64,000 nt of DNA, from NCBI RefSeq assembly GCF_011742555.1, contig NZ_JAAQQR010000002.1:1-64000 (forward strand), written 5' to 3'. The stretch comes from Luteibacter jiangsuensis (GTDB taxonomy: Bacteria; Pseudomonadota; Gammaproteobacteria; Xanthomonadales; Rhodanobacteraceae). The position numbers and the translations under genes were made by a program. The notes under the pieces are model-generated. The model had not been told where the DNA came from and did no database searches. It saw only the letters and a program-made list of their open reading frames with translations. Below are positions 25,628 through 61,748 of this stretch, one piece after another; position 1 is the stretch's first letter, and each line of letters opens with the position of its first letter.

Positions 25628-25684
25628 TCAGGCCCTGTGGGAGACATCAGGCCCTGTGGGAGACATCAGACCCTGTGGGAGCCG
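25628..25684. repeat. Short tandem array, 19-bp units ending in a REP
   Basis: TCAGGCCCTGTGGGAGACA occurs twice (25628-25646, 25647-25665). A third copy starts TCAGACCCTGTGGGAG and turns into the REP at 25675. It again grows from the GTGGGAG head. The neighbouring 25504-25627 shows no gene. Confidence 0.85.
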
Positions 25685-25755
25685 GCTATGCCGGCGATCC
25701 CGCGGCAGCGGGCAACCCCGCCGCGAGCACCCATCGCCGCTGAAGCGGCTCCCAC
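25675..25755. repeat. BIME between flgB and cheV
   Basis: REP (GTGGGAGCCGGCTATGCCGG), central CCCGCGGCAGCGGG, then inverted REP ending GAAGCGGCTCCCAC. It lies 30 nt past the cheV stop and could end cheV transcripts before the flg promoter region. Confidence 0.85.
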
Positions 25756-25785: not shown

Positions 25786-26703
25786 TCAGGCGGGGAGGAG
25801 TTCGAGCACCGCGGTTGCCAGCACGTCCGGCTGGAACTTCGCGATGAAGCGGTCGGCGCCCACCCGGGCCACCATCGCTTCGTTGAACACCCCGCTGAGC
25901 GAGCTGTGCAGGAGAACCTTCACGTGGCGCAGCTGGGCGTCCTCGCGAATGGCCCTCGTCAGCGCGTAGCCGTCCATCGAGGGCATCTCGATGTCCGAAA
26001 CGACCAGAGCGATGCGATCCGCGGCGGGGCCCATGGTGAGCGTGCGCAGGACGTCCAGGCCTTCGCTGCCGTCCTTGGCCACCACGCATTCGAGGTCCAT
26101 CTTGCGGAAGAGGTCGACCAACTGGGTTCGCGCCACAAGGGAATCGTCCACCACCAGCACGCGCCGGTTCGCGACGTGCTGCACCTGGGCCGCCTGCTGC
26201 ACCCGGTCGGAAAGCTCCACCGCCTGCGGGTCGACACTGGCAAGCACCTGTTCCACGTCGACGATGGCGAGCAGGTCGCCGTCGAGGCGGGTCACCGAGT
26301 TGACACGGGCGCCATAGCCCAGCGCGTGTGGCGGAGCGGCCATCTGGGCGCCGTCGACATGGACGATGCGGTCCACGTCGGAGACCAGAAAGCCCTGCAC
26401 CGAGCGGTTGAACTCGGTGACGATGAGGTGCGCGGTGTCCACCGCGGCCAGGGGCGGGTAACCCATGGCGGCGGCGAGGTCGATCACGGGGATCGTGCTG
26501 CCGCGATAGTCGAAGCTGCCTGCGACCAACTCATGCATGCTGGGCATGCGCTCCAGCCGCGGCCTGCGCAGCACCTCGCGCACCTTGAACACGTTGATCC
26601 CGAAGGCCTGGCGATCGCCCAGGCGGAACAACAGCATGGCCACGCGATTGTGGCCCGCCAGGCGGGTGAAGGTTTCCACGGTGTCGAGGAGCGGTCGGGC
26701 CAT
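25786..26703 (-). CDS. cheV: Chemotaxis coupling/response-regulator hybrid CheV
   Basis: 305 aa from ATG 26703 (MARPLLDTVETFTRLA). A CheW domain (about 15-165; LLFRLGDRQAFGINVFKVRE, GSFDYRGSTIPVIDLA) is followed by a receiver domain (about 180-305; RRVLVVDDSLVARTQL, phospho-acceptor Asp in VVSDIEMPSMDGYAL). It links chemoreceptors to CheA and tunes signalling by phosphorylation. It is monocistronic. A sigma-28-like promoter at 26739-26765 suggests expression with the late flagellar genes. Confidence 0.95.
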   Translation of the reverse strand: MARPLLDTVETFTRLAGHNRVAMLLFRLGDRQAFGINVFKVREVLRRPRLERMPSMHELVAGSFDYRGSTIPVIDLAAAMGYPPLAAVDTAHLIVTEFNRSVQGFLVSDVDRIVHVDGAQMAAPPHALGYGARVNSVTRLDGDLLAIVDVEQVLASVDPQAVELSDRVQQAAQVQHVANRRVLVVDDSLVARTQLVDLFRKMDLECVVAKDGSEGLDVLRTLTMGPAADRIALVVSDIEMPSMDGYALTRAIREDAQLRHVKVLLHSSLSGVFNEAMVARVGADRFIAKFQPDVLATAVLELLPA

Positions 26704-26738
26704 GGGCTGCGTGTGCGTCGAAGGAGGTGTCGCGAACC

Positions 26739-26768: not shown

Positions 26769-26844
26769 GTGGGAGCCGCTTCAGCGGCGATGGGTGCTCG
26801 CGGCAAGCGTGCCCGCTGCCGCGGGATCGCCGGCATAGCCGGCT
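26769..26844. repeat. BIME interrupted by the IS110 element (left part)
   Basis: A complete first REP (GTGGGAGCCGCTTCAGCGG), the central hairpin and most of the inverted REP (GATCGCCGGCATAGCCGGCT) are present. The expected final CCCAC is absent here and reappears after the IS at 28028-28032. The CT at 26843-26844 is the insertion core and is repeated at 28026-28027. Confidence 0.85.
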
Positions 26845-26857
26845 TGTATGTTGTAAC

Positions 26858-27043
26858 CGCCCCTTTCTCCCCGCCGATGGCTGAGAGATAAGGGGCTGGG
26901 GTGAGGGACATAGCTGGTATCGGCTCGTATGAGGAGACCGACCGTGGGAGACATCCCTATCCCATCGTGAGCGTCGATGAAGGATCTGGCGATCCAATCG
27001 CCGATGAACAAGCTAACGCCTGATGGGACTTCACCCCAGCCGT
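26858..27043 (+). ncRNA. Probable bridge RNA of the IS110 element
   Basis: A 5' hairpin (CCCCTT 26860-26865 with AAGGGG 26890-26895, inner TCTC/GAGA) is followed by a long-range 11-bp helix, GGCTGGGGTGA (26894-26904) with TCACCCCAGCC (27031-27041). This helix encloses two internal loops. Target loop: stem GGGA/TCCC (26905-26908, 26954-26957), left guide UCGGCU (26920-26925), right guide GUGGGAG (26944-26950). These match the occupied REP target CGG-CT-CCCAC. Donor loop: stems CATC/GATG and GCGT/ACGC, left guide AGGAUCU (26981-26987) identical to the right end at 28021-28027. A hairpin GGCGAT-CCA-ATCGCC follows, then right guide ACAAG (27008-27012) complementary to CTTGT at 26843-26847. The organisation follows that described for IS621. 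Confidence 0.82.
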
Positions 27044-27071
27044 CCTTGAGACTACGAGGAGTTGGGTCGCC

Positions 27072-28022
27072 ATGCCACTACAGCATTTCGGAATCGATAT
27101 CGACAAAGCCGCCCTGACGGTGGCCTGTCATGAGGTGCCCGGCCGTACCGAGCGGGTGAGCAACGACGCCGCGTCGATCGACGCCTGGTTACGCCGGTTG
27201 CCTACCGACAGCGTGCTCGCGGTGGAGGCCACCGGGGCCTGCCATCAGGCCCTGCTACAGGGCGCCGTCCGCCACGACCTGCCGATCTACCTGCTCAACC
27301 CCCGCGACGTCCGTCACTACGCCGAAAGTCTGCGCCGACGGGCCAAGACCGACCGGGTCGATGCCCAGGTCATCGCCCGTTATGTCGCCCACGAGAAGGG
27401 CAACCTGCGCCGCTATCTGCCCGCGCCGGCCAGCGCGGCGCGCCTGGAGCAGCTGCTGCGACGACGCGCCCTGCTGGCACAGACACAGGCGCAGCTCCGA
27501 CTCGGCTGTAGCGATCTGGCGCTGCCGGCGATGGATCACCTGCATGCCAGTTTCAAGGCGACCCTGGCCGCGCTGGACGAGCAGCTCGATGCGCTGGTCG
27601 CCCAGGACGAGCAACGTGCCCGTCAGCGTGAGCAACTGCGCTCCATTCCCGGCGTCGGGCCCTTGAACAGCCTCGCCTTGGTCAGCTTGTTCTGGCGCCT
27701 GCCCAGCATCACGGCCGACGGCTTGATTGCTTTTGTCGGCTTCGATCCGCGCCCGCGCGAATCGGGTAACTATCGCGGGCAACGAAGGATCTCCAAGCGA
27801 GGGGACGCCGAGACCCGGCGTCTCGGCTACCTCGCCGCCCAGGCCTTCGCCCGGCACCCCGTCGGCAGGCCTCTCTACGACCGCTATCGTCAGCGAGGCC
27901 TCAGCGCCACAGCGACCTACGTCATCCTCGCCAGGAAGATTCTTCGTCTGGCCCATGCGCTCATCAGCCAGGGCACGACCTTCGACCCTCAACGCTTCGC
28001 GGCCGCTTGCGCGGGAACATAG
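27072..28022 (+). CDS. IS110-family bridge-RNA-guided recombinase (transposase)
   Basis: 316 aa. The RuvC-like DEDD domain has D9 (FGIDID), E52 (VEATG), and D94 and D97 ([13 protein letters not shown]). A coiled-coil region (about 120-190) leads to the Tnp domain with [14 protein letters not shown] (191-204) and ISKRGD, whose Ser241 is the likely nucleophile. All catalytic residues are present and the frame is unbroken, so the element may be active. GAGGAG lies 11 nt before the ATG. The TAG stop is 3 bp from the CT core. Confidence 0.95.
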
Positions 28023-28025
28023 GAT

Positions 28026-28032
28026 CTCCCAC
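28026..28032. repeat. Right end of the REP split by IS110
   Basis: CTCCCAC restores the REP end missing from the left piece at 26844 and carries the second copy of the CT core. Confidence 0.8.
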
Positions 28033-51576: not shown

Positions 51577-51657
51577 GTGGGAGCCGCTTCAGCGGCGATG
51601 GGTGCTGGCGGCGGCCTTGCCCGCTGCCGCGGGATCGCCGGCGGAGCCGGCTCCCAC
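51577..51657. repeat. BIME between the peptidase gene and parC
   Basis: GTGGGAGCCGCTTCAGCGG, central CCCGCTGCCGCGGG, inverted REP ending GAGCCGGCTCCCAC. It ends 108 nt before parC. The remaining space probably holds the parC promoter. Confidence 0.85.
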
Positions 51658-54056: not shown

Positions 54057-54137
54057 GTGGGAGCCGGCTATGCCGGCGATCCCGCGGCAGCGGGCGAGCT
54101 TGCCGCGAGCATCCATCGCCGCTGAAGCGGCTCCCAC
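54057..54137. repeat. BIME downstream of parC
   Basis: GTGGGAGCCGGCTATGCCGG, central CCCGCGGCAGCGGG, inverted REP ending GAAGCGGCTCCCAC. It is 50 nt past the parC stop and continues into the 13-bp tandem array. Confidence 0.85.
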
Positions 54138-61545: not shown

Positions 61546-61748
61546 TAGCGAGTTTTGCCGTCCGGCGCAGTCACCCAGAGGGTCACCACGGCGGCGATTC
61601 GAAGCGCGATTGTAACCGCACGGCGCCACCCTTGGCCCCGGCGCGGGGCAATCGCTTCAACGCCACACACGCATCGGCACCGTCTTCGGGGTGCCTGTCC
61701 TTCGGGGCGGGTCGAAGCCGGGGATGCGTGGAGGTCCCAACCCCCATA

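What the first reader, a model, noticed from the sequence alone, without database searches (positions are those of the whole stretch)
26845..28027. IS110 element with a bridge RNA whose four guides can be read from sequence
The 227-bp left end folds into a 5' hairpin and an 11-bp closing helix (26894-26904 with 27031-27041) enclosing two guide loops. The donor loop carries AGGATCT (identical to the right end) and ACAAG (complement of core plus left end). The target loop carries CGGCT (plus a U-G pair) and GTGGGAG (complement of CT plus CCCAC). Together they spell donor AGGAT-CT-TGT and target CGG-CT-CCCAC, exactly the sequences flanking the element. All DEDD residues and the Tnp Ser are present, so it may be a working RNA-guided recombinase.
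Basis: partly seen in the sequence, partly recalled or inferred. Interest (0 to 1): 0.85.

Follow-up and report, generated by a model that had tools for sequence, protein, structure and literature searches.

The report
REP-targeting IS110 element with bridge RNA

Summary
26845-28027 is a complete 1183-bp IS110-group element. A second full copy (9 SNPs) in the same genome fixes both ends; both copies interrupt CGGCT|CCCAC inside a REP-type repeat that is uninterrupted in hundreds of other places and at the orthologous locus of a close relative. The recombinase matches IS621 and ISCro4 and has all five catalytic residues. A covariance model trained only on relatives finds the left end at E=4e-18. 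In 19 related elements the target guides match their own flanks (0 of 20,000 permutations as good) and the left donor guide matches its own right end (19/19). The left target guide is CAUAGCUGGU at 26909-26918, pairing with 10 nt of the flank (8 Watson-Crick, 2 rU:dG); it predicts the CATAGC subclass of the repeat (87 of 610 sites) in which both copies sit. Bridge RNAs and REP targeting by IS110 elements are published, so this is a new member of a known kind. Transcription and activity are not shown here.

The parts
26845..28027 (+). complete IS110-group insertion sequence, 1183 bp
   Evidence: second 99%-identical copy G000:C17:87211-88393(-) ends at the same bases
26834..26844 (+). left target CATAGCCGG plus CT core at the REP insertion site
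   Evidence: shared by both copies; intact CATAGCCGGCTCCCAC occurs at 87 other places in the genome
28028..28032 (+). right target CCCAC
   Evidence: shared by both copies and by four copies in G008
26861..26896 (+). 5' stem-loop of the bridge RNA
   Evidence: MFE and centroid fold
26894..26904 (+). closing helix, 5' arm (with 27031-27041)
   Evidence: 11-bp perfect complement; a closing helix of 6-14 bp of differing sequence is found in all 19 elements
27031..27041 (+). closing helix, 3' arm
   Evidence: as for the 5' arm
26909..26918 (+). left target guide (LTG) CAUAGCUGGU, corrected position
   Evidence: pairs with CATAGCCGGC of the left flank, 8 WC + 2 rU:dG; P about 2.5e-5 at this register; same structural position as the LTG of the relatives
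   Evidence: 7-bp stem with bulged A, covarying among 19 sequences
26934..26941 (+). apical stem of target-binding loop, 3' arm
26944..26950 (+). right target guide (RTG) GUGGGAG
   Evidence: 7/7 complementary to CTCCCAC; covaries with the target in relatives
26981..26987 (+). left donor guide (LDG) AGGAUCU
   Evidence: identical to right end 28021-28027; kept in step with the right end in 19/19 elements
26988..27002 (+). apical stem-loop of donor-binding loop
   Evidence: covarying stem
   Evidence: complements CTTGT of the circle junction; same AU-3nt-CAAG spacing as the published IS621 RDG
27072..28022 (+). IS110 recombinase, 316 aa; D9 E52 D94 D97 and S231
   Evidence: Pfam PF01548 + PF02371, NCBIfam NF033542 above cut-off; aligned to the IS621 structure sequence
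28004..28027 (+). right end; in the circle supplies the left donor half and a TTGCGC -35-like box 17 bp before TATGTT of the left end
   Evidence: junction scan over 19 elements

Best explanation
An intact IS110-group (IS621-like) insertion sequence. By analogy with IS621, the recombinase excises the element as a circle; the right-end/left-end junction joins the donor halves AGGAT-CT-TGT and forms a promoter across the junction, so the left end is transcribed as a bridge RNA of roughly 150-190 nt. Its target-binding loop pairs with the host REP repeat (LTG CAUAGCUGGU with the bottom strand of CATAGCCGGC, RTG GUGGGAG with the top strand CTCCCAC) and its donor-binding loop pairs with the circle junction (LDG AGGAUCU, RDG AU..CAAG). 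The DEDD/Ser recombinase then joins the two at the CT core. Shown here: ends, target, guide pairing and covariation, conserved RNA structure, intact catalytic residues. Inferred: transcription, RNA binding, excision and insertion.
For: Second copy with identical ends and target; four identical copies of a 68%-identical element in G008, all at GGCT|CCCAC; protein families and IS621/ISCro4 homology with all catalytic residues; covariance model made from relatives only finds 26895-27035 at E=3.9e-18; guide-target permutation test 0/20,000 for LTG, RTG and both; LDG follows the right end in 19/19 and the handshake base follows the target in 18/19; 610 CGGCTCCCAC sites against 68 for the reversed control; the close relative G022 carries an uninterrupted ...CGGCTCCCAC REP and no IS at the orthologous locus.
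Against: No transcript or recombination data. The circle-junction -35 box is weaker here (TTGCGC, 3/6) than in most relatives (TTGACC, 5/6). The two copies differ by 9 SNPs, so the last jump in this genome is not very recent. The LTG pairs the core C by wobble and does not pair the core T. In G008 the LTG match is shorter (5-7 consecutive pairs) and the RTG has one mismatch.
Confidence: 0.95

Rival explanations
1. One reading: the same system, but with the left target guide (U)CGGCU at 26920-26925.
For: It is identical to the last 5 bases of the left flank including the full CT core; in one G008 copy (L105) this stretch scores best in an ungapped scan.
Against: It lies in the 5' arm of a stem that covaries among 19 sequences, bulged A included, and the independent covariance model puts it there. 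In the other relatives the guide lies just 5' of this stem. It would accept all 610 sites, yet both copies are in the CATAGC class (87/610). Three of four G008 targets read TGGCT, a mismatch to CGGCU but a pair for the U of the upstream guide.
Confidence: 0.04
2. A dead remnant: correct anatomy but no longer mobile.
For: Weak junction -35; 9 SNPs between the two copies.
Against: Both ORFs are intact with only 3 amino-acid differences, all catalytic residues are present and all guides still match. The 68% relative with the same TTGCGC box has four identical copies at four different sites, which implies recent movement.
Confidence: 0.25
3. Target choice is by protein recognition of the REP palindrome, and the guide matches are coincidence.
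For: Elements of other families, without a bridge RNA, also insert in REPs (PMC1525189).
Against: Guide-target covariation across 19 elements with differing targets; chance of the LTG match 2.5e-5 and of the RTG match 2e-3 at fixed register.
Confidence: 0.01

Closest known systems
IS621 (E. coli, IS110 group; PMC11208160, PMC11208158)
   Same: Same domains and catalytic residues; left-end bridge RNA with target and donor loops; CT core; discontiguous AU..CAAG right donor guide; promoter at the RE-LE junction; insertion in REP elements.
   Different: Distant in protein sequence (phmmer E=2e-23); another REP sequence and so other LTG and RTG (CATAGCCGG-CT-CCCAC against ATCAGGC-CT-AC); 7-nt RTG against 4; weak -35 at the junction.
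   Same: 68% protein identity, very similar bridge RNA and ends, same GGCT|CCCAC target.
   Different: One mismatch in RTG, different 5' half of LTG, four identical copies.
ISPa11, ISPpu9, ISPpu10 (PMC1525189)
   Same: IS110-family elements inserted specifically in REP sequences.
   Different: Not compared by sequence here.

Membership tests
IS110 family, IS110 group (bridge-RNA elements) | DEDD RuvC-like domain plus Transposase_20 domain with catalytic Ser | tested here: met
   PF01548 E=2.9e-20, PF02371 E=5.6e-14, NF033542 165 bits against cut-off 140; D9 E52 D94 D97 S231
IS110 family, IS110 group (bridge-RNA elements) | long left end, short right end, bridge RNA in the left end | tested here: met
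   LE 227 bp, RE 5 bp after the stop codon; independent covariance model hit 26895-27035, E=3.9e-18
IS110 family, IS110 group (bridge-RNA elements) | target and donor guides complementary to own insertion site and own ends | tested here: met
IS110 family, IS110 group (bridge-RNA elements) | no long terminal inverted repeats; short ATA/TAT sub-terminal repeat around the donor core | tested here: met
   RE cATAggatct / LE tgTATg by reading
IS110 family, IS110 group (bridge-RNA elements) | sigma70-like promoter formed at the RE-LE junction | tested here: inconclusive
   17-bp spacing and TATGTT present, but -35 is TTGCGC, 3/6
IS110 family, IS110 group (bridge-RNA elements) | bridge RNA is transcribed and binds the recombinase; circular intermediate | not testable with these tools
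   needs RNA sequencing, a binding assay and junction PCR
IS1111 group | bridge RNA in the right end and long sub-terminal inverted repeats | tested here: not met
   right end has 5 bp after the stop codon, no room for an RNA

The most novel reading that the evidence does not exclude
Bridge RNAs of this gammaproteobacterial clade are a natural record of retargeting: guides drift together with host REP families (for example the matched C/T change in LTG and target between two elements of one genome, G544), and rU:dG wobbles in the LTG let one guide accept both C and T variants of REP arms, so that the element can follow a REP family as it diverges.
Probability: 0.3. Interest if true: 0.4.

Novelty: new member of a known kind. 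Interest (0 to 1): 0.22.

Why it matters
It adds an apparently intact bridge-RNA recombinase with a new natural target and both ends verified, a possible further scaffold for programmable recombination. It also shows that guides read from a single sequence can be misplaced when a neighbouring stem resembles the target; relatives put it right.

Tried and rejected
Rfam (gathering and permissive) has no matching family, so a covariance model was built from relatives. Plasmid tblastn found nothing at E<=1e-30 and plasmid blastn only short pieces; viral contigs gave one distant relative at 28%. Genome contigs gave 22 mostly distant loci, two of which (L005, L006) had clear ends and were used. One pattern search was badly designed and says nothing. 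A first comparison of the two copies used the wrong strand and was redone. Elements with less similar ends (L007, L030-L035, L100 and others) were left out of the covariation test because their ends could not be set by the same rule. No structure was predicted, since sequence homology to the solved IS621 was clear.

Full report
WHAT IS THERE. The stretch 26845-28027 holds a 316-aa ORF (27072-28022) with 227 bp before it and 5 bp after it. A DNA search of the window's own genome (4.33 Mb, 20 contigs) finds one other full copy, G000:C17:87211-88393 on the minus strand, with 9 differences in 1183 bp and 3 in the protein. Both copies begin and end at the same base. Both are flanked by ...GATCGCCGGCATAGCCGGCT on the left and CCCAC on the right; beyond CCCAC the flanks differ. 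The left flanks are alike over about 75 bp because both lie in the same repeat family. No other gene of this Pfam family was found in the genome.

THE PROTEIN. Pfam DEDD_Tnp_IS110 (2.9e-20) and Transposase_20 (5.6e-14), NCBIfam 'IS110 family RNA-guided transposase' above its cut-off. The only solved relatives found by sequence are IS621 and ISCro4 (2e-23 and 6e-22). Mapped through that alignment, IS621 D11, E60, D102, D105 and S241 are D9, E52, D94, D97 and S231 here (residue names from PMC11208158).

THE TARGET. CGGCTCCCAC occurs 610 times in the genome, against 68 for the same letters reversed. Thirty sampled sites show REP pairs about 80 bp long, GTGGGAGCCG...CGGCTCCCAC, mostly in two arm classes: GCTGAAGCGGCT (18 of 30) and GCCGGCxxAGCCGGCT (11 of 30). 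The stricter CATAGCYGGYTCCCAC occurs 87 times, 0 for the reversed control. At the orthologous locus, between the same two flanking genes, the nearest relative G022 (95% identical right flank) has no IS and an uninterrupted REP pair ending CTATAGCGGCTCCCAC.

THE RNA. The left end folds better than shuffles. Nineteen distinct elements with CT|TGTATG left ends and CATAG(G/A)ATCT right ends were collected, this one included (33-68% protein identity to it). RNAalifold on their alignment gives 16 pairs, 12 of which change on both sides in at least one sequence. All 19 have a closing helix of 6-14 bp with differing sequence. A covariance model built from 16 relatives, without this element or G008's, finds window 26895-27035 at 83.6 bits, E=3.9e-18; the next hit in 64 kb has E=1.7.

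GUIDES. For each of the 19 elements the best pairing of its target loop with its own flanks was compared with the flanks of the others: mean LTG score 7.5 (own) against 5.8 (others), RTG 6.6 against 4.8; none of 20,000 permutations reached the observed values. Examples of RTG and right target: GUGGGAG/CTCCCAC, AGCCGAG/CTCGGCT, GUAGGAG/CTCCTAC, GAAUAAG/CTTATTC, GGUUCAG/CTGAACC. Two elements of one genome (G544) differ by C/T in the LTG and by the same C/T in the target. The LDG follows the right end in 19/19, through a G/A change (5 GGATC, 14 GAATC); the base after the RDG, the published handshake base, pairs with target base 7 in 18/19, C:G turned to G:C in two (handshake from PMC11208158). 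These sequences are related, so the permutation count is not a strict probability.

THE CORRECTION. In the relatives the LTG lies directly 5' of the apical stem of the target loop, as in IS621 (stem, LTG, stem loop, RTG). Here that stem is UCGGCUC (26920-26926) with GAGACCGA (26934-26941), bulged A included; its third pair is U-A in 13 sequences, G-C in 4 and C-G in 1. The stretch just before it, CAUAGCUGGU (26909-26918), pairs with CATAGCCGGC of the left flank over 10 nt, with two rU:dG pairs. At that register the chance is 2.5e-5, and among 6040 CT sites in the rest of the window only two fit, both REPs with a perfect RTG match. This guide also predicts the CATAGC subclass in which both copies lie (87 of 610 sites, so about 2% by chance for two), and its U accepts both the CGGCT and the TGGCT targets of the four G008 copies.

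MECHANISM. As in IS621 (PMC11208160, PMC11208158): circle, promoter at the junction, bridge RNA, synapsis of donor and target, exchange at CT. The junction places TTGAC(A/C/T) 17 bp from TATG(T/G)(T/C) in most relatives; here TTGCGC. In many relatives that box overlaps the stop codon TGA; here and in G008 it reads TGC and the ORF runs on to the TAG inside the right end (sequences). Four identical G008 copies with the same TTGCGC box suggest that it does not prevent movement.

NOVELTY. Bridge RNAs and the REP targeting of IS110 elements are published (PMC11208160; Tobes and Pareja 2006, PMC1525189). This is a new member of a known kind; the only new points are its particular target, the corrected guide, and the natural retargeting series among its relatives.

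Noticed in passing
G000:C4:25755-26021 and 26206-26733: The genome's only Y1_Tnp match (REP-associated tyrosine transposase-like) is followed at once by eight CGGCTCCCAC sites in alternating orientation, four tandem REP pairs: possibly the gene that spreads the repeat which the IS110 targets.
   Followed up: partly
window 28004-28022: The recombinase stop codon of many relatives (TGA within TTGACC, which is also the junction -35 box) is TGC here and in G008, so the ORF is extended by a few codons to a TAG inside the right end and the -35 box is weakened.
   Followed up: partly
L122 and L129 (genome G544): Two related elements in one genome differ by one base in the LTG and by the same base in the target: a natural compensatory retargeting pair.
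   Followed up: partly
L109 (G008:C1:1918500-1923500): A cluster with fragments of two further copies of the G008 element, both with a recognisable bridge RNA.
   Followed up: no
L007 603-741 and 1860-1944: Two bridge-RNA matches in one Candidatus Glomeribacter contig, the second weaker and directly before a recombinase that looks decayed.
   Followed up: no
window 250, 1966-2103, 25684-25746, 51586-51648, 54066-54128: Further REP copies in the window, intact potential targets of the element.
   Followed up: no
window 61646-61741: Rfam t44 RNA match, 69 bits.
   Followed up: no
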